Source: Ruminococcus sp. (GTDB taxonomy: Bacteria > Bacillota > Clostridia > Oscillospirales > Ruminococcaceae). Taken from it: a stretch of DNA of 32,900 bases. Shown one piece after another: positions 3,016-29,836 of this stretch; within the stretch, counting starts at the first letter, position 1; every line of letters starts with the position of its first letter. Under the pieces are notes generated by a model, which saw only the letters and a list, made by a program, of their open reading frames with translations, made no database searches and had not been told where the DNA came from. Made by a program: the position numbers and the translations under genes. The stretch is taken from contig JAFVCV010000034.1 of the NCBI GenBank assembly GCA_017478965.1, forward strand, positions 1 through 32,900, given 5' to 3'.

Positions 3016-3607
3016 TATCTTCCTCCTTAAAAATGCAGCCGAACAGCAGCTCAAACAGCTTATCCTGTGTGCGCTGATAACCGCTTTCGTGCAGCATGGC
3101 ATGGTTCTCGGCCGTCAGAGCCAGTATTTTCAGCAGATTTGATATGACTGCATAGTCTGCGTCCTCACGAACGCCCTCGAACATTTCAAACAGACGTTTG
3201 AGCACCTCTGTCTCCTCGCCGATATCCGCCGCAGCCTTCTCGGGGATCGCATCAGCCAGCTTTTTTTCGTCCTCAGGGGTCAGGTACTGATACACGCTGT
3301 CGTTATTGTTGATTATCTCCCTGAGCACCTGCTTGCTCTCGGCCACTGTCAGCTTTGCCCTTTCGCCCAGCATATCAGTCACCGCCTTCCAGAAACGGCT
3401 GCGGTTGAACTCGATGAGCTGTATAACGAAATCCTCCTTCGACATGAAGAAATTGTAGAAAGTGCTTTTGCCTATGCCTGCGGCGGCGGTGATCTTCTCC
3501 ACGGACATATGAGTCATGCCATGCTCCTTCAGAAGCTCCAGCCCCGAGTAGAACATTTTCTCTTTCAGCAGTTCTTTTTCGGCGATAGAAAATAACTTTG
3601 GTGACAT
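3008..3607 (-). CDS. TetR/AcrR family transcriptional regulator
   Basis: A 199-residue regulator. The N-terminal helix-turn-helix (about residues 10-60) has the TetR pattern, with MSVEKITAAAGIGKSTFYNFF as recognition region followed by KEDF. The C-terminal ~140 residues form the variable ligand-binding domain. The start ATG 3607 follows AAAGGAGG at good spacing. It is the first gene of the operon with the two ABC half-transporters, overlapping the next start by 8 bp. Repeated GCGACTA half-sites lie between its promoter and its start codon, which suggests autoregulation and control of the transporters by an unknown ligand. Confidence 0.92.
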   Translation of the reverse strand: MSPKLFSIAEKELLKEKMFYSGLELLKEHGMTHMSVEKITAAAGIGKSTFYNFFMSKEDFVIQLIEFNRSRFWKAVTDMLGERAKLTVAESKQVLREIINNNDSVYQYLTPEDEKKLADAIPEKAAADIGEETEVLKRLFEMFEGVREDADYAVISNLLKILALTAENHAMLHESGYQRTQDKLFELLFGCIFKEEDNE

Positions 3608-3620
3608 TTTATCCTCCTTT

Positions 3621-3669
3621 GCGACTACTTTTAAAAATATAGCGACTAAATTTATAATAATGGTCGCTA
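3621..3669. promoter_or_regulatory. Probable TetR operator: inverted and direct GCGACTA repeats
   Basis: TAGCGACTA at 3640-3648 and TGGTCGCTA at 3661-3669 form an inverted repeat with 8 of 9 positions matching. A third copy, GCGACTA, sits at 3621-3627 next to the tetR ribosome site. All lie just downstream of the tetR promoter, where a bound repressor would block transcription. Binding by the adjacent TetR protein is inferred. Confidence 0.65.
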
Positions 3670-3675
3670 AAGTGT

Positions 3676-3704
3676 ATTATAGCATATTGTTCAGAGTATG
3701 TCAA
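3676..3704 (-). promoter_or_regulatory. Sigma-A type promoter of the tetR-ABC-ABC operon
   Basis: Read on the minus strand, TTGACA (3704-3699) and TATAAT (3681-3676) are both perfect hexamers separated by 17 bp. Transcription would start near 3669, at the edge of the repeated operator and about 60 nt upstream of the tetR start. Confidence 0.85.
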
Positions 3705-3786
3705 GGGGGAATGCAAAAAAACTCCGGCATGGCTCAATAAAGGATATCTTTCCGTGTCAGACGGATAAAAAAAGCCTTGCGGGATA

Positions 3787-3815
3787 TTGAAATGTCTGAG
3801 CTTTTGTGCTATAAT
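3787..3815 (+). promoter_or_regulatory. Promoter of the araC-feo operon
   Basis: TTGAAA (3787-3792) and TATAAT (3810-3815) are separated by 17 bp, with an expected start near 3822. No other strong promoter is seen between here and feoB, so the AraC gene and the feo genes are probably one transcript. Confidence 0.75.
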
Positions 3816-3817
3816 AG

Positions 3818-3831
3818 TTAGGCAATACTAA
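3818..3831. promoter_or_regulatory. Candidate iron-responsive (DtxR/IdeR-like) operator
   Basis: TTAGGCAATACTAA is an imperfect palindrome (TTAG/CTAA arms, extended outward to GTTAG/CTAAC). It overlaps the predicted transcription start of the feo operon. DtxR/IdeR-type sites have TTAGG...CCTAA arms, and this copy differs in one inner base. The resemblance is visible; metal-dependent repression is inferred from position and from the genes controlled. Confidence 0.45.
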
Positions 3832-3847
3832 CCAAGGAGGCGGTCGT

Positions 3848-24558: not shown

Positions 24559-24586
24559 AATATAGTCGTCAAAGGGCGGCGCTGAT

Positions 24587-24672
24587 GGACAGGTGTCCGA
24601 GTGGTTTAAGGAGCCGGTCTTGAAAACCGGTGATACGGCAACGTACCGTGGGTTCGAATCCCACCCTGTCCG
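24587..24672 (+). tRNA. tRNA-Ser (anticodon TGA)
   Basis: The acceptor stem GGACAGG (24587-24593) pairs with CCTGTCC (24665-24671), followed by discriminator G. The anticodon loop in GCCGGTCTTGAAAACCGG reads TGA. A long class II variable arm (TACGGCAACGTACCGT region) and the GGTTCGAATCC T-arm are present. CCA is not encoded. Confidence 0.97.
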
Positions 24673-24716
24673 TTCATTGGTTTAAATATTTCGGCCGGGC
24701 CGATATACCAGCATTT

Positions 24717-24803
24717 GCGGATTTACCCAAGTGGTGAAGGGGCTCCCCTGCTAAGGGAGTAGGTCTCGAAAGGGGCGCGAGAGTTCAAATCTCTCAATCC
24801 GCG
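24717..24803 (+). tRNA. tRNA-Ser (anticodon GCT)
   Basis: The acceptor stem GCGGATT (24717-24723) pairs with AATCCGC (24796-24802), followed by G. The anticodon arm CTCCCCTGCTAAGGGAG reads GCT. A long variable arm and the GAGTTCAAATCTC T-arm are present. CCA is not encoded. It lies 44 bp after the first tRNA-Ser and is probably cotranscribed with it. Confidence 0.97.
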
Positions 24804-24811
24804 TACAGTAT

Positions 24812-24862: not shown

Positions 24863-24891
24863 TTGACAAAAGGTCAGGGGTGTGGTATAAT
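24863..24891 (+). promoter_or_regulatory. Promoter of the T-box leader
   Basis: TTGACA (24863-24868) and TATAAT (24886-24891) are perfect hexamers with a 17-bp spacer. The expected start is near 24898. Confidence 0.9.
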
Positions 24892-24897
24892 ATCTAC

Positions 24898-25182
24898 ACA
24901 TATTCTAAAGACTGTGACGGAGACAGTAGGCAGTACAGTGAAGCTCCCAGCGAGCCGCAGACAGTGAAAGTGCGGTATCAGTAGCTTTCTGCTGAACATC
25001 ACTCCCGAGTTGCGCCCGGAAAGGCTGAGGCTTAGTATGCGGCGACGCTTTGCAGCGTTAAAGGCAGCACGTATGAAATGAGAGGCGCTGGCTTTTCACA
25101 GTACGGTGTAAAACAGGTGGTATAACGAAGGCATATGCTTATTTTGCTTTCGTCCTATTTTACGTAGGACGGGGGCTTTTTT
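24898..25182 (+). promoter_or_regulatory. T-box riboswitch, probable isoleucine specifier
   Basis: Stem I has AGTA motifs (24925-24928, 24932-24935) and the distal CAGCGAGCC / AGTGAAAGTGCGG elements. The specifier loop reads GAAC-ATC-A, with ATC (Ile) at 24998-25000 followed by the conserved purine; the overlapping CAT (His) would be followed by C. The T-box core ACAGGTGGTATAACGAAG is at 25113-25130. The terminator arms are 25146-25157 and 25165-25176, followed by six T (25177-25182). The antiterminator can form by pairing AGG (25116-25118) with CCT (25154-25156) and ACGAAG (25125-25130) with CTTTCGT (25147-25153), which excludes the terminator. Uncharged tRNA-Ile would therefore switch on downstream genes. 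The obvious target, ileS, is 1.5 kb away. Confidence 0.9.
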
Positions 25183-25242
25183 GTTTGTTCCTTTTTACTT
25201 TTGTGTTGTTGATAAGATAGATCAGGATTTAGAGGTGCAGAT

Positions 25243-25749
25243 ATGTTTATCCCCGAAATACCAGATAACAGTTTGAAAGATGAAATAACTCAGATCGTCG
25301 AATTAAGTAAAAAGCTCGAAAACGACTATGATTTTGAGTATGATCCACCTGCTACCGAGGAAGAATTATCTTCATGGGAAAAAGAGCATAATATAAAAAT
25401 ACCTGAATCAATCAAAGATTGGCTTAGGTTTTCATGCTATTCACATATTCGCAACGAACTTGCTGTAATCAGGAATGTTAACGACTTTGAAGTCAATTGT
25501 GAAATAGTTCCTGAAGACATGGTTATAATTGGCGAGGTAATAGGCGATGGTGAATTTATAGGTTTTTCCAAGAAAAATGGCACAATCTTATGGGAAGATC
25601 ACGGCAATTTAGAATGCTATAATAACTTTAAAGAGCTACTAAAAGAAATTATTGATATGATGCATGGCCATACAGGATTATCCGAAACATCCATTAACAT
25701 TTTACAAGCAATGGCAAAAAAAGCTAAAGAAGGAAATAACAATGACTGA
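25243..25749 (+). CDS. SMI1/KNR4 (SUKH) family protein, possible immunity protein
   Basis: A 168-residue acidic, AT-rich gene. PPATEEELSSWEKEHNIKIPESIKDWLRF is the hallmark N-terminal region of SMI1/KNR4 proteins. It is followed by beta-rich segments (VIIGEVIGDGEFIGFSKKNG, TILWEDHGN) and a C-terminal helix, which together complete the fold. SUKH proteins are often immunity proteins against secreted polymorphic toxins, but no toxin gene is visible here. The start ATG 25243 follows AGAGGTG. It is the first gene after the T-box terminator, 60 bp away, so it sits under isoleucine control. Codon use is more AT-rich than in the flanking ileS, suggesting insertion. Confidence 0.87.
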   Translation: MFIPEIPDNSLKDEITQIVELSKKLENDYDFEYDPPATEEELSSWEKEHNIKIPESIKDWLRFSCYSHIRNELAVIRNVNDFEVNCEIVPEDMVIIGEVIGDGEFIGFSKKNGTILWEDHGNLECYNNFKELLKEIIDMMHGHTGLSETSINILQAMAKKAKEGNNND

Positions 25750-25903
25750 AGCACAAAGAATAATAAATGATTTTAATGCACTAGACATATCTGATAGAAA
25801 AGCGTATCTTGTGCAGATCAACGTTAACGTAAAGGGTAAGGCGCTTGCGCCGAATCGTGACTGCGCCGCCGCTTGCTCAGCGGCAAATTTTGATTTATCT
25901 TAG
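25742..25903 (+). pseudogene. Truncated small ORF, probable remnant
   Basis: A 53-codon frame overlapping the SMI1-like gene by 8 bp (ATGACTGA). The first ~27 residues (MTEAQRIINDFNALDISDRK onward) look like a genuine N-terminus and share the AT-rich composition of the upstream gene. From about 25830 the frame enters a GC-rich hairpin region and becomes Ala/Cys-rich before the stop. It is best read as a gene cut by a rearrangement; a short real protein is possible. Confidence 0.45.
25840..25884. repeat. GC-rich double hairpin at a composition break
   Basis: GGCGC-TT-GCGCC (25840-25851) and GCCGCT-TGCTC-AGCGGC (25868-25884) are two perfect stem-loops 16 bp apart. They lie at the point where AT-rich sequence from the SMI1 block ends. 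They resemble short extragenic palindromic repeats or the scar of an element; no second copy exists in this window. Confidence 0.55.
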
Positions 25904-25961
25904 GAACACATTTGTAAAAAGGGAGTTTTGTTTTCAGCAAAGCCAAAAAGGAGGGAAAGTG

Positions 25962-26657
25962 ATGATAACAGACAGCTTTGACCCGATATCCAAGGCAATT
26001 ATCGACCCCTATGAACTGAGGGGGAAGGACCTGCCAAAGGTGGATATCTGCATCATTACTTTCTCCTGTATCATAGAAAGGTCTGTCAGGGAGAACTACC
26101 CTTGTAAGCAGATAGCAGTTCTCAGAAATGCGGCGGGGGCCATCGAGGACTGCATAATGTCGCTGGACTGCGGGAAGTTCCTGGCTTTCGGAGGTGCGGG
26201 GTGTCTTGATAAGGAGATCGCTCACGGAAAGGTGATGGTGCCCACGGAGGCTTACCGTGACGAGGGGACTTCTTACCACTATGCGGCGCCTGCGGACTAT
26301 ATCAGAGTGTAGAATTCTGATAAGGTCGCAGCTTTTATGGAAGAGAACGGTCTGCCCTATGTTATGGGGAAGACCTGGACCACCGACGCATTTTTCAGAG
26401 AGACGAAAAACAATTTTGAGAAACGCAGGGCTGAGGGCTGTATCTCCGTGGAGATGGAATGTTCAGGCTTTCAGGCGGTGTGCGATCTGCGTGGGCTGGA
26501 ATTCTACACGTTCTTCACCAGCGGGGACCTGCTGGATGCGCCGGAGTGGGACGACAGAAGAAAGTGCAGTCAGGAAAAATGCACCCAGCACGACGCCGGG
26601 CATTTTGACATCGCTCTGGAGCTGGCGTTGTATATGACGGATAAGACACGATCATAG
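25962..26657 (+). pseudogene. Nucleoside phosphorylase family gene interrupted by an in-frame TAG
   Basis: The frame starts at ATG 25962 after AAGGAGGG and would encode 231 residues. The first part (to codon 116) includes KFLAFGGAGCLDKEIAHGKV and PTEAYRDEGTSYHYAAPADY, typical of purine/uridine phosphorylases. Codon 117 is TAG (26310-26312). The same frame then continues without shift into VAAFMEENGLPYVMGKTWTT, DAFFRE and the conserved CISVEMECSGFQA to a normal stop at 26657. One base change in a sense codon such as CAG or AAG would explain it. Sequencing error or suppression cannot be excluded. Without the stop it would act in purine or pyrimidine salvage. It precedes ileS by 35 bp. Confidence 0.85.
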
Positions 26658-26692
26658 TACAGATCAATTTTTTATGAAAGGATAGATGTAAA

Positions 26693-29600
26693 GTGTACAA
26701 AAAAGTAGACACTAACCTGAACTTTGTTCAGCGTGAGAAGGAAGTACTGAAATTCTGGCAGGAGAACGGTATTTTTGAAAAGAGCATCGACACCCGTGCA
26801 AAGGGCGACAGCTATGTTTTCTACGACGGTCCTCCTACCGCCAACGGCAAGCCCCATATCGGCCACGTGCTGACCAGAGCTATAAAGGACATGATACCGA
26901 GATACCGGACCATGAAGGGCTATAAGGTACCGAGAAAGGCCGGCTGGGATACTCACGGACTGCCTGTTGAGCTGGAGGTCGAAAAGCTGCTGGGTCTTGA
27001 CGGCAAGGAGCAGATCGAGGAATACGGCGTTGAGCCGTTCATCGAGAAGTGCAAGGAGAGCGTCTGGAAATACAAGGGTATGTGGGAGGATTTCTCCGGC
27101 ACGGTAGGTTTCTGGGCCGATATGGACCACCCTTACGTTACCTACCACAATGAGTTCATCGAGTCTGAATGGTGGGCGCTGAAACAGATCTATGAAAAGG
27201 GACTGCTGTATAAGGGATTCAAGATAGTACCGTACTGCCCCAGGTGCGGAACTCCTCTTTCCTCTCACGAGGTAGCTCAGGGCTATAAGCTGGTAAAGGA
27301 AAGGTCCGCTGTGGTACGTTTCAAGATAAAGGATAAGGACGAGTACTTCCTTGCCTGGACCACCACCCCATGGACACTGCCCTCGAACGTGGCGCTCTGC
27401 GTTAACCCTGAGGAGGAATACGCTAAGGTCAAGGCTGCTGACGGGTATACCTACATAATGGCTTCAGCACTGCTGGACGCTGTTTTAGGCAAGCTTTCAG
27501 AGAGTGGAGACGCTTATGAGGTAGTGGAGAGATATAAGGGCACCGACCTTGAATATATGGAATATGAGCCGCTGTTCGCCTGCGCAGGAGAATGTGCCGC
27601 AAAGCAGGGCAAAAAGGGCTTTTTCGTCACCTGCGACAGCTATGTCACCATGTCTGACGGTACCGGTATCGTTCATATCGCACCGGCCTTCGGTGAGGAC
27701 GACTCAAAGGTAGGAAAGAAGTACGATCTGCCCTTCGTTCAGTTCGTTGACGGCAAGGGCAACATGACTGAGGAGACTCCCTACGCCGGGACCTTTGTCA
27801 AGAATGCAGACCCCATGGTGCTCAAGGACCTGGAGGCTGAAGGCAAGCTTTTCGATGCGCCTAAGTTCGAGCACGATTACCCCCACTGCTGGAGGTGCAA
27901 TTCGCCGCTCATCTACTACGCAAGAGAGTCATGGTTCATCAAGATGACCGAGGTCAAGGACAGGCTTGTGGCAAATAACAAGACCATCAACTGGATACCC
28001 GAGAATATCGGCTCCGGACGTTTCGGCGACTGGCTGAACAATGTTCAGGACTGGGGCATCTCCAGAAACAGATACTGGGGCACTCCGCTGAACATCTGGG
28101 AGTGTAAGTGCGGGAAAAGGCATTCGGTAGGCTCCATCGAGGAGCTGAAGAAGATGTCTCCCAACTGCCCGGAGGATATCGAGCTTCACAGGCCTTTCAT
28201 AGACAATGTGACCCTTACCTGTCCCGACTGCGGCGAGCAGATGAGGAGGGTGCCGGAGGTAATAGACTGCTGGTTCGACTCAGGCTCCATGCCTTTTGCA
28301 CAGCACCACTATCCCTTTGAGAACAAGGAGCTGTTCGAGGAGCAGTTCCCGGCGGACTTCATCTCGGAGGCTGTTGACCAGACCAGAGGCTGGTTCTATT
28401 CGCTGCTGGCTATCTCCACTCTTATCTTCGACAAGGCGCCTTTCAAGAACGTGGTAGTTCTGGGCCTTGTACAGGATAAGGACGGTCAGAAGATGTCCAA
28501 ATCCAAGGGCAACGCCGTTGACCCGTTCCAGGCTCTGGAGGACTTCGGCGCTGACGCTATAAGATGGTATTTCTACACCAATTCACAGCCCTGGCTGCCG
28601 AACAAGTTCCACGACAAGGTAGTCACCGAGGGACAGAGAAAGTTCATGGGCACTCTCTGGAACACCTACGCATTCTATGTGCTATATGCTGATATAGACA
28701 GCTTTGACCCCACAAAGCACAAGCTGGAATACGATAAGCTCAGCGTTATGGATAAGTGGCTGCTGTCAAAGATGAACAATATGATAAAGGAAGTAGACTC
28801 CAGTCTGGAGAACTACAAGATACCTGAGGCCGCAAAAGCTATGCAGGATTTCGTGGACGAGATGTCCAACTGGTATGTGCGCAGGGGCAGAGAGCGTTAC
28901 TGGGTACAGGGCATGAACGAGGACAAGGTCAATGCCTACATGACCCTTTATACCGCTCTGGTAAATGTCTGCAAGTGTGCTGCGCCCATGGTGCCGTTCA
29001 TCACGGAGGCTATCTATCAGAACATGGTCAAGAGCGTGGACGCTGCGGCTCCGGAAAGCATACATCTGTGCAGTTTCCCCGTAGCTGAGGAGACACAGAT
29101 CGACGCCAAGCTCGAGGCCGATATGGACGAGGTAAGGGATATCGTCGTTCTGGGCAGAAGTGCAAGAAACGGCTCAAACCTGAAAAACAGGCAGCCTCTG
29201 AGCGTTATGTACGTAAAGGCGGACCACGAGGTCGGCAGCTACTATGTGGATATAATCAGGGACGAGCTGAACATGAAGGAAGTGAAGTTCGTAAGCGATA
29301 CTTCTTCCTTTGTGGACTATAAGTTCAAGCCGCAGCTGAAGACCCTGGGACCCAAGTTCGGACGCTATCTTAACGAGATAAGGACCGCCCTGGACGGGCT
29401 GGACGGACACAAGGCCATGGCGGAGCTTGACAGCACCGAGGAGCTGAAGCTGACCATCTCCACCGGAGAGATAGCTCTCAGCAGAGAGGACGTGCTCATC
29501 GAAACTGAGCAGCTGGAGGGATTCTTTACCCTGACCGAGGGCGGAGTCACTGTGGCTATCAGCACTGTGCTCACGCCGGAGCTTATCGAAGAGGGTTATG

Positions 29601-29836
29601 TCCGTGAGATCATCAGCAAGGTACAGACCATGAGGAAGGATTCCGGCTTTGAGGTCATGGACCACATCGTGCTGACGCTCAGCGGAAATGACAAGCTCTT
29701 TGAGATAGTCAGCAAGAACCGTGAGGAGATATGCACCGATGTCCTGGCCGACGAGATAAAGCAGGGCAGCGCTACCAATTCAAAGGAATGGGATATAAAC
29801 GGCGAGAAGGTCACTATCGGCGTGACCAGGGTCTGA
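26693..29836 (+). CDS. ileS: Isoleucyl-tRNA synthetase, long eukaryote-like type
   Basis: A 1047-residue class I synthetase that charges tRNA-Ile. The HIGH motif is at residues 55-58 (PPTANGKPHIGHVL) and KMSKS at 600-604. The CP1 editing domain lies between them, with TTPWTLPSN. Zinc-ligand cysteine pairs occur in YCPRCG, CWRCNS, CKCG and CPDCG. Length and wording (KAGWDTHGLPVELEVEK, NVQDWGISRNRYWGTPL) match the IleRS2 type, about 1040 residues, rather than the ~920-residue bacterial type 1. IleRS2 enzymes are often naturally insensitive to mupirocin. The start is GTG 26693 with a weak AAAGGAT site. No strong promoter is seen just upstream, so expression may depend on readthrough from the T-box transcript. 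Confidence 0.97.
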   Translation: MYKKVDTNLNFVQREKEVLKFWQENGIFEKSIDTRAKGDSYVFYDGPPTANGKPHIGHVLTRAIKDMIPRYRTMKGYKVPRKAGWDTHGLPVELEVEKLLGLDGKEQIEEYGVEPFIEKCKESVWKYKGMWEDFSGTVGFWADMDHPYVTYHNEFIESEWWALKQIYEKGLLYKGFKIVPYCPRCGTPLSSHEVAQGYKLVKERSAVVRFKIKDKDEYFLAWTTTPWTLPSNVALCVNPEEEYAKVKAADGYTYIMASALLDAVLGKLSESGDAYEVVERYKGTDLEYMEYEPLFACAGECAAKQGKKGFFVTCDSYVTMSDGTGIVHIAPAFGEDDSKVGKKYDLPFVQFVDGKGNMTEETPYAGTFVKNADPMVLKDLEAEGKLFDAPKFEHDYPHCWRCNSPLIYYARESWFIKMTEVKDRLVANNKTINWIPENIGSGRFGDWLNNVQDWGISRNRYWGTPLNIWECKCGKRHSVGSIEELKKMSPNCPEDIELHRPFIDNVTLTCPDCGEQMRRVPEVIDCWFDSGSMPFAQHHYPFENKELFEEQFPADFISEAVDQTRGWFYSLLAISTLIFDKAPFKNVVVLGLVQDKDGQKMSKSKGNAVDPFQALEDFGADAIRWYFYTNSQPWLPNKFHDKVVTEGQRKFMGTLWNTYAFYVLYADIDSFDPTKHKLEYDKLSVMDKWLLSKMNNMIKEVDSSLENYKIPEAAKAMQDFVDEMSNWYVRRGRERYWVQGMNEDKVNAYMTLYTALVNVCKCAAPMVPFITEAIYQNMVKSVDAAAPESIHLCSFPVAEETQIDAKLEADMDEVRDIVVLGRSARNGSNLKNRQPLSVMYVKADHEVGSYYVDIIRDELNMKEVKFVSDTSSFVDYKFKPQLKTLGPKFGRYLNEIRTALDGLDGHKAMAELDSTEELKLTISTGEIALSREDVLIETEQLEGFFTLTEGGVTVAISTVLTPELIEEGYVREIISKVQTMRKDSGFEVMDHIVLTLSGNDKLFEIVSKNREEICTDVLADEIKQGSATNSKEWDINGEKVTIGVTRV

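What the first reader, a model, noticed from the sequence alone, without database searches (positions are those of the whole stretch)
24898..26692. An isoleucine T-box is separated from ileS by inserted and broken genes
The T-box leader has an ATC specifier followed by A, a clear T-box core and mutually exclusive antiterminator and terminator. T-box leaders normally abut the synthetase they control. Here about 1.5 kb intervenes: a SMI1/KNR4-like gene, a probably truncated ORF, a GC-rich double hairpin and a nucleoside phosphorylase with a nonsense codon. No strong promoter is seen just before ileS. Either an immunity-type gene has been captured into a tRNA-Ile starvation regulon, or ileS has lost tight control.
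Basis: partly seen in the sequence, partly recalled or inferred. Interest (0 to 1): 0.8.

Follow-up and report, generated by a model that had tools for sequence, protein, structure and literature searches.

The report
Extra genes behind tRNA-sensing switches
In this gut Ruminococcus the RNA switch that senses uncharged isoleucine tRNA is separated from the enzyme gene it normally controls by a mobile immunity-type gene and a dead gene, and many such switches across the genus have unrelated genes slipped in at the same place, which probably wires those genes to amino-acid shortage.

Summary
Rfam RF00230 matches 24905-25160 (80.4 bits, E 2.5e-17; under the 93-bit cut-off, like the 16 ileS T-boxes found in genus relatives). 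The specifier is ATC followed by A, with a perfect promoter upstream. ileS starts 1532 nt after the model's end. In 15 of 16 relatives with this leader the gap is 49-82 nt; the exception is the sister species G023 (2685 nt, intact phosphorylase plus two membrane-like genes). The SMI1/SUKH gene lies in a ~736-nt element with inverted terminal repeats, 25190-25925, one of a small family of such elements in the genus. The phosphorylase carries a TAG and has lost 28 codons.

The premise that T-boxes abut their target fails in this genus. Of 122 other T-boxes with an identified target, 45 are 500 nt or more away: tyrS 22 of 23, leuA 8 of 20, asnS 7 of 18, hisS-aspS 5 of 13, alaS 3 of 9, but trpE 0 of 21 and ilvA 0 of 10. 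ORFs in the gaps are mostly co-directional, and displaced leuA, asnS and most tyrS leaders keep the matching specifier. Best reading: ileS is still T-box-controlled in an operon that gained a mobile gene. Transcription was not tested.

The parts
24863..24891 (+). Promoter of the T-box transcript (TTGACA-17-TATAAT with TG)
   Evidence: 12 of 12 consensus match; G023 has the same 12 of 12 site before its T-box
24905..25160 (+). T-box leader (RF00230), specifier ATC at 24998-25000, T-box bulge UGGU at 25118-25121
   Evidence: cmscan 80.4 bits, E 2.5e-17; alignment with 16 relatives
25146..25182 (+). Intrinsic terminator of the T-box (stem 25146-25176, then U-run)
   Evidence: 13 pairs, loop 5, T tail; -17.5 kcal/mol
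25190..25925 (+). TIR-bounded mobile element carrying the SMI1 gene; arms about 42 nt at 25190-25231 and the inverted copy ending at 25925
   Evidence: inverted repeat; arm alignment; local score 16 against shuffle mean 8.2, max 14 of 300; eight other distinct stretches with the same two ends
25243..25749 (+). SMI1/KNR4 (SUKH-1) family gene, 168 aa, GC 0.34
   Evidence: Pfam PF09346; 48 homologues, best 95% identical; GC
25742..25903 (+). Short ORF (53 aa) overlapping the end of SMI1 and running into the right end of the element; status unknown
   Evidence: no Pfam match, no relative in the loci held
25820..25900 (+). GC-rich double hairpin just before the element's right end
   Evidence: -24.6 kcal/mol; weak terminator-like stem 25868-25884
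25962..26657 (+). Nucleoside phosphorylase pseudogene (PNP_UDP_1): 28 codons missing between 26135 and 26136, and TAG at 26310-26312
   Evidence: Pfam PF01048 in both pieces; comparison with intact G023 gene
26693..29836 (+). ileS, isoleucyl-tRNA synthetase, presumed main target of the T-box
   Evidence: Pfam tRNA-synt_1 434 bits, Anticodon_1

Best explanation
This is an ordinary tRNA-Ile T-box whose operon has been lengthened from inside. In the ancestor shared with the sister species G023 a nucleoside phosphorylase gene probably already stood between leader and ileS. In the window's lineage that gene decayed and a small TIR-bounded element carrying an SMI1/SUKH gene without a recognisable promoter inserted just past the terminator, in the same direction. 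When uncharged tRNA-Ile binds, transcription reads past the terminator through SMI1, the dead phosphorylase and ileS; when tRNA-Ile is charged, it stops before all three. Shown: leader, specifier, promoter, element ends, lesions, sister arrangement, genus-wide pattern. Inferred: the ancestral state, read-through to ileS, co-regulation of SMI1, and that the element itself moved.
For: Leader complete with cognate specifier. The only strong promoter is before the leader; no promoter-like site in the last 880 nt before ileS and no strong terminator between. Sister G023, grouped with the window at 100/100 support, has T-box and three co-directional genes with gaps of 62, 12 and 35 nt down to ileS, so the T-box was kept after displacement; 37 of 45 comparable pairs are standard there, two with both sides changed. 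Another Ruminococcus lineage (L063) has T-box, DUF3592 gene, YjbR gene, ileS. Genus survey: 45 of 122 other T-boxes are 500 nt or more from their target, 42 of them with a co-directional ORF of at least 80 aa between; of the ORFs of 70 aa or more picked in gaps of 300 nt or more, 85 are co-directional and 6 not. A specifier-like codon fits the target in 8 of 8 displaced leuA, 7 of 7 displaced asnS, 15 of 22 displaced tyrS and, as Asp codon, 5 of 5 displaced hisS-aspS. One 380-aa membrane-like family has six copies in 29 genomes, and all six lie between a T-box and its target (three leuA, three tyrS).
Against: No transcript data. Four weak 9-of-12 promoter-like sites lie in or just after SMI1, and a promoter of another type would be missed. 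In G023 a 10-of-12 promoter-like site lies inside the 222-aa gene, about 0.8 kb before ileS, and about 0.7 kb of tandem repeats separates the T-box from the first gene. The AT-rich element could hold a promoter or, at its hairpins, a terminator that cuts ileS off. The specifier pattern is crude (several candidate codons per leader) and failed for alaS (fits in 1 of 9) and for 7 of 23 tyrS leaders. In G023 8 of 45 comparable pairs are non-standard, within the range of relatives whose leader abuts ileS. The genome is an unnamed draft in 55 contigs.
Confidence: 0.72

Rival explanations
1. ileS has escaped: an unrecognised promoter in the element or pseudogene now drives ileS, and the T-box governs only SMI1 or nothing.
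For: ileS is essential and 1.5 kb away; four 9-of-12 promoter-like sites lie in or just after SMI1 and a 10-of-12 site before ileS in G023; the gene next to ileS is already dead, so its sequence is free to change.
Against: No + strand promoter-like site between 25811 and ileS; leader and its promoter stay intact in both sister species; most displaced targets elsewhere in the genus whose specifier could be read keep a fitting one, which relics would not.
Confidence: 0.17
2. The interval is a neutral landing site: insertions after a T-box terminator are tolerated because the operon is read through anyway, and the cargo has no functional tie to tRNA charging.
For: Cargo is very mixed: 86 proteins in 38 clusters, 21 of them singletons; the window's own cargo is half dead; 5 of 9 gaps over 200 nt before ileS in named genomes show no clear gene; 3 of the 45 long gaps in the survey lack a co-directional ORF of 80 aa.
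Against: trpE (0 of 21) and ilvA (0 of 10, though one has a 477-nt gap with a 107-aa ORF) stay close while tyrS is displaced in 22 of 23; one protein family is found only behind T-boxes, of two specificities; S66 peptidases of the MccF type occur in Leu or Asp T-box operons in 7 or 8 of the 12 genomes with a copy at E below 1e-50, before or after the target. None of this is corrected for kinship. This rival concerns benefit, not regulation, and is compatible with the best explanation.
Confidence: 0.45
3. Assembly artefact: the draft contig joins unrelated pieces between T-box and ileS.
For: Unnamed draft of 55 contigs, 92.8% complete; several copies of the right-end repeat sit near contig ends in other genomes.
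Against: The same three anchors, T-box, phosphorylase, ileS, in the same order on one contig of an independent genome; element ends recur; genomes in few contigs (G001 in 2, G002 in 5) show the same type of displacement at hisS (887 nt) and tyrS (2067 nt).
Confidence: 0.04

Closest known systems
T-box leaders of ileS (RF00230; the S. aureus ileS case is known to me from the reference list of PMC2494555)
   Same: Specifier ATC, T-box bulge, antiterminator against terminator, own promoter, ileS in the same direction
   Different: 1.5 kb with a mobile gene and a pseudogene between leader and ileS; in 15 of 17 genus members examined the gap is 49-82 nt
T-box operons whose first gene is a 'tRNA-ligase related hypothetical' (Wels et al. 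2008, PMC2494555, Table 2; section 15 read)
   Same: A non-synthetase gene stands first behind a synthetase-type T-box (for example Val, Ala, Gly, Thr in Streptococcus)
   Different: There listed as single hypotheticals to be annotated from the T-box; here cargo differs between sister species, fills most tyrS T-box operons of a genus, and in the window lies in a TIR-bounded element
SUKH / SMI1-KNR4 immunity-type proteins (function recalled)
   Same: Pfam PF09346 above cut-off
   Different: No toxin domain in the neighbouring proteins scanned; no other copy in this genome
MITE-like non-autonomous elements with terminal inverted repeats (recalled)
   Same: Short, TIR-bounded, several copies in the genus, no transposase gene seen
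   Different: Six of nine copies carry one whole gene, always in the same orientation; target-site duplication not established

Membership tests
T-box leader RF00230 | Covariance-model match over the full model | tested here: met
   Positions 1-219 of 219, 80.4 bits, E 2.5e-17; below the curated 93 bits, as are the 16 ileS leaders found in relatives
T-box leader RF00230 | Specifier codon cognate to the regulated gene | tested here: met
   ATC in 17 of 17 aligned ileS leaders
T-box leader RF00230 | UGGN bulge whose N fits the tRNA discriminator base | tested here: inconclusive
   UGGU read at 25118-25121; A73 of tRNA-Ile is recalled, the tRNA-Ile gene was not examined
T-box leader RF00230 | Mutually exclusive antiterminator and terminator | tested here: met
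   Shared strand 25149-25157; folding energies
T-box leader RF00230 | Response to uncharged tRNA-Ile | not testable with these tools
   needs transcription assay
SUKH (SMI1/KNR4) family | Profile match above cut-off | tested here: met
   33.7 bits against 25.4
SUKH (SMI1/KNR4) family | Immunity against a partner toxin | not testable with these tools
   no toxin domain among the other seven window proteins scanned; a related SUKH protein in G023 also matches Tox-GHH
TIR-bounded (MITE-like) element | Terminal inverted repeats | tested here: met
TIR-bounded (MITE-like) element | Multiple copies at unrelated sites | tested here: met
   nine distinct paired stretches among 409 sequences held, some of them fetched because they hold the right-end repeat; similar cargo at two different sites in L185/L180 and L188
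TIR-bounded (MITE-like) element | Target-site duplication | tested here: inconclusive
   TTTTGTTT on both sides in the window, low complexity; no constant length in other copies
MccF-type S66 peptidase (cargo of other T-boxes, not of this window) | Closer to MccF/MccC-family chains than to LD-carboxypeptidases of peptidoglycan recycling | tested here: met
   two proteins tested: 464 and 443 bits to chains named MccC family; 82 and 131 to the best chains named MccF; 38 and 60 to a muramoyltetrapeptide carboxypeptidase
MccF-type S66 peptidase (cargo of other T-boxes, not of this window) | Hydrolysis of aminoacyl or peptidyl nucleotides | not testable with these tools
   biochemical assay needed

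The most novel reading that the evidence does not exclude
In Ruminococcus, T-box leaders act as alarm-controlled expression slots: genes are repeatedly recruited between leader and synthetase because uncharged tRNA is a good signal that something is blocking tRNA charging. Part of the cargo would be protective, such as MccF-type peptidases behind Asp and Leu T-boxes, GNAT acetyltransferases behind Tyr T-boxes and an SMI1/SUKH gene behind the Ile T-box, so that synthetase and protection rise together.
Probability: 0.2. Interest if true: 0.85.

Novelty: new variant of a known kind. Interest (0 to 1): 0.6.

Why it matters
If T-box targets are read off the first downstream gene, an unrelated gene would be named in about a third of the T-boxes sampled in this genus, and tyrS would be missed almost always. 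If cargo is really co-regulated, these operons show which accessory genes a gut bacterium links to tRNA charging, and sister species make the gain and loss of such genes visible at single loci. The TIR-bounded elements are a plausible delivery route for one of them.

Tried and rejected
Rejected: (1) that displacement is peculiar to this locus: the own genome has two more (tyrS 1542 nt, leuA 1234 nt). (2) That the same element family delivers the other cargo: no paired element in the 128 other T-box loci (L254-L381). (3) That G023's 94-96-nt tandem repeats (seven units) are the same element: they give 20 matches in G023, the query included, and one in G016, none in the window's genome. (4) That this SMI1 gene is common: 4 of 29 genus genomes and 29 of 396 family genomes, the own one counted in both, hold any relative; the best of the others is 42% and 45% identical. 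(5) Plasmid or viral carriage: no plasmid match for SMI1, no exact 21-base left-end match in viral contigs; the phage collection was not searched. (6) No link of the phosphorylase to tRNA charging could be argued beyond guesswork.

Mended on checking: my hisS reference was translated in a wrong frame. It still found the 13 loci, because the DNA is similar, but placed hisS 35 nt too early. One search repeats the count with the right reference: hisS 5 of 13 instead of 4, in all 45 of 122 instead of 44, 27 of 29 genomes instead of 26.

Led nowhere: papers joining T-box with SUKH, with LD-carboxypeptidase, with MccF or with synthetase-inhibitor immunity: none relevant (listings only). Searches gave listings; I then saw passages of PMC2494555 and its section 15, and passages of PMC7778990, PMC9239234 and PMC3817062. 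Structure prediction was not used.

Full report
WHAT WAS CHECKED. The T-box is real. cmscan with permissive filters places RF00230 over its full length at 24905-25160 (80.4 bits, E 2.5e-17). It is under the curated cut-off, which is why the default scan lists only the two tRNA-Ser genes upstream. The genome has nine T-box matches at E 0.001. The specifier ATC at 24998-25000 is followed by A; 17 of 17 aligned ileS leaders of the genus share it. A 12 of 12 promoter precedes the leader, a terminator of 13 pairs ends at 25176, and its 5' strand contains the 3' strand of the antiterminator.

SPACING OF ileS IN RELATIVES. ileS with upstream sequence and a T-box was found in 16 of the 28 genus relatives. 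In 15 of 16 the leader ends 49-82 nt before ileS; in G023 the gap is 2685 nt, in the window 1532 nt. Not counted: eight genomes with a 44-45% identical IleRS type (three scanned over about 6 kb: no T-box; five only looked at over at most 1.5 kb), G019 and G027 with ileS cut by a contig end, and G007 and G026 without a full hit. Window and G023 are sisters with 100/100 support. G023 has T-box, seven units of a 94-96-nt tandem repeat, an intact 256-aa phosphorylase, a 222-aa protein without Pfam match (membrane-like by eye), a DUF3592 protein, then ileS. So displacement probably predates the split of the two species, and the content changed since.

NAMED GENOMES. Of 80 named ileS loci, a profile built from 53 leaders, many from these same loci, found a T-box in 69: 60 within 200 nt of ileS, nine farther; 11 had no hit, some with little upstream sequence. 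Of the nine, four have ORFs in the gap: L063 (DUF3592 and YjbR families), L065, L066 and L135 (not scanned); five show no clear gene by eye. L061 and L062 are genomes of the G set again (identical ileS). L063 groups apart from the window pair, yet its DUF3592 protein is 46% identical to that of G023; shared origin and repeated recruitment cannot be told apart.

THE SMI1 BLOCK IS AN ELEMENT. An inverted repeat brackets SMI1 and the short ORF. The arms align over about 42 nt and score 16 against a mean of 8.2 and a maximum of 14 in 300 shuffles; the two stretches were chosen after seeing the repeat. The right arm is a repeat found in 18 of 29 genus genomes, the own one included. Among 409 sequences held, part of them fetched for this repeat, nine distinct stretches of 246-1013 nt have both ends paired. 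Six hold one main ORF running from left to right end: SMI1 (window), three similar proteins of which the one scanned is DUF6054 (at two different sites), a 221-aa protein (DUF4064, below its cut-off) and a kinase-like protein of the APH family; the other three have no clear gene. A target-site duplication is not established. SMI1 is AT-rich (GC 0.34; ileS 0.53), is the only match in its genome, and has relatives of up to 95% identity in the protein collection, the few named ones from Ruminococcus.

THE PHOSPHORYLASE IS DEAD. Two lesions against G023: 28 codons missing in frame and a TAG. Both parts still match PF01048.

GENUS-WIDE SURVEY. RF00230 gave 276 matches in 29 genomes (sum of the per-genome column); only the best-scoring ones are listed with places. 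I fetched 120 of the listed ones and the other eight of the own genome. The target was identified in 122 of 128; six showed none in the stretch held. The sample leans to high-scoring leaders. Target 500 nt or more away: tyrS 22 of 23, leuA 8 of 20, asnS 7 of 18, hisS 5 of 13, alaS 3 of 9, trpE 0 of 21, ilvA 0 of 10, trpS 0 of 3, cysE 0 of 3, thrS 0 of 1, pheS 0 of 1; in all 45 of 122, 42 of them with a co-directional ORF of at least 80 aa, in 27 of 29 genomes. Another 14 lie at 200-499 nt (asnS 6, alaS 4, ilvA 2, hisS 1, thrS 1). tyrS, asnS, alaS and hisS together 37 of 63 against trpE and ilvA 0 of 31, Fisher p 2e-9, without correction for kinship and with groups chosen after seeing the counts. 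leuA, not a synthetase, is also displaced, so the divide is not simply synthetase against biosynthesis.

DO THE DISPLACED TARGETS STILL BELONG TO THEIR T-BOXES? A simple pattern for the specifier finds a codon fitting the target in 20 of 20 leuA leaders, 18 of 18 asnS, 16 of 23 tyrS, 21 of 21 trpE, 9 of 10 ilvA, 3 of 3 trpS, 1 of 1 thrS; for the hisS group a His codon in 0 of 13 but GAC (Asp) in 13 of 13, with aspS further down in 11 of 13 of these loci. It fails for alaS (1 of 9), cysE (1 of 3) and pheS (0 of 1). Among displaced ones: leuA 8 of 8, asnS 7 of 7, tyrS 15 of 22, hisS group 5 of 5. Several candidate codons per leader are common, so this is supporting, not decisive.

WHAT THE CARGO IS. 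86 proteins of at least 80 aa (82 from survey gaps of 300 nt or more, four from the window and G023) form 38 clusters, 21 of them singletons. Eighty were scanned by Pfam: 75 of those 82, the same four, and one of L063; among the 25 families shown the most frequent are radical SAM (9), GNAT (8), pyridoxamine-phosphate-oxidase-like (7), S66 peptidase (5), sodium:dicarboxylate symporter (3, probably the three-member cluster behind asnS) and methyltransferases (3). A 380-aa membrane-like family has six copies in 29 genomes and all six lie between a T-box and its target, leuA in three and tyrS in three. The two S66 peptidases compared with solved structures are of the MccF type by sequence. Of 12 genomes with a copy at E below 1e-50, five have it between T-box and target (four leuA, one Asp T-box with hisS), two after leuA behind a T-box, one after leuA at a contig start, three without a T-box in the 4.7-5.6 kb fetched, and one at a contig edge. 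MccF and the GNAT MccE2 are described as self-immunity enzymes against microcin C, an AspRS inhibitor (passages of PMC9239234); MccF is reported to cleave effectively only aspartyl and glutamyl adenylates (passage of PMC3817062), which fits the Asp case better than the Leu cases. This is the basis of the bold reading; it does not bear directly on SMI1.

MECHANISM. Inferred: transcription starts near 24898, stops after 25176 when tRNA-Ile is charged, and reads through SMI1, pseudogene and ileS when it is not. Weak internal promoters may add a basal level. The novelty lies in the turnover of cargo and in an element as its carrier, not in the T-box. Genes other than synthetases first behind such T-boxes are in print (PMC2494555, Table 2); my searches listed no paper on such cargo in Ruminococcus, in a library that lacks most subscription journals.

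Noticed in passing
L041 (G023:C56), oriented 3195-3845: Seven units of a 94-96-nt tandem repeat between T-box and phosphorylase; 20 matches in G023 (this one included), one in G016, none in the other 27 genomes.
   Followed up: partly
G002-G005, G009, G013, G018, G025 (L029-L036): Eight genomes of the same genus carry an IleRS only 44-45% identical to the window's; a TTGACA/TATAAT-like promoter and a short hairpin lie right before it, and no T-box was found in the three scanned.
   Followed up: partly
G004, G018, G025 and G023, L063 upstream of ileS: DUF3592-like genes recur upstream of ileS in lineages with quite different IleRS types.
   Followed up: no
L201:442-1947 (-), G023: A 501-aa protein with two SMI1/KNR4 stretches and a match to the Tox-GHH nuclease domain.
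   Followed up: no
L183:1559-2470 (-): A TIR-bounded stretch with the same ends as the window's carries a kinase-like gene of the APH family.
   Followed up: partly
L255:6633-7772 (-) and five relatives: A rare 380-aa membrane-like protein family seen only between T-boxes and their targets (6 of 6 copies in 29 genomes); the protein collection gave only one further relative, from a short contig.
   Followed up: partly
L382, L383, L385: MccF-type S66 gene directly after leuA in three genomes, before leuA in four others: same operon, swapped order.
   Followed up: partly
window 24586-24804: Two tRNA-Ser genes (TGA, GCT) with an 11-of-12 promoter before them and a terminator after them, immediately upstream of the T-box promoter.
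   Followed up: no
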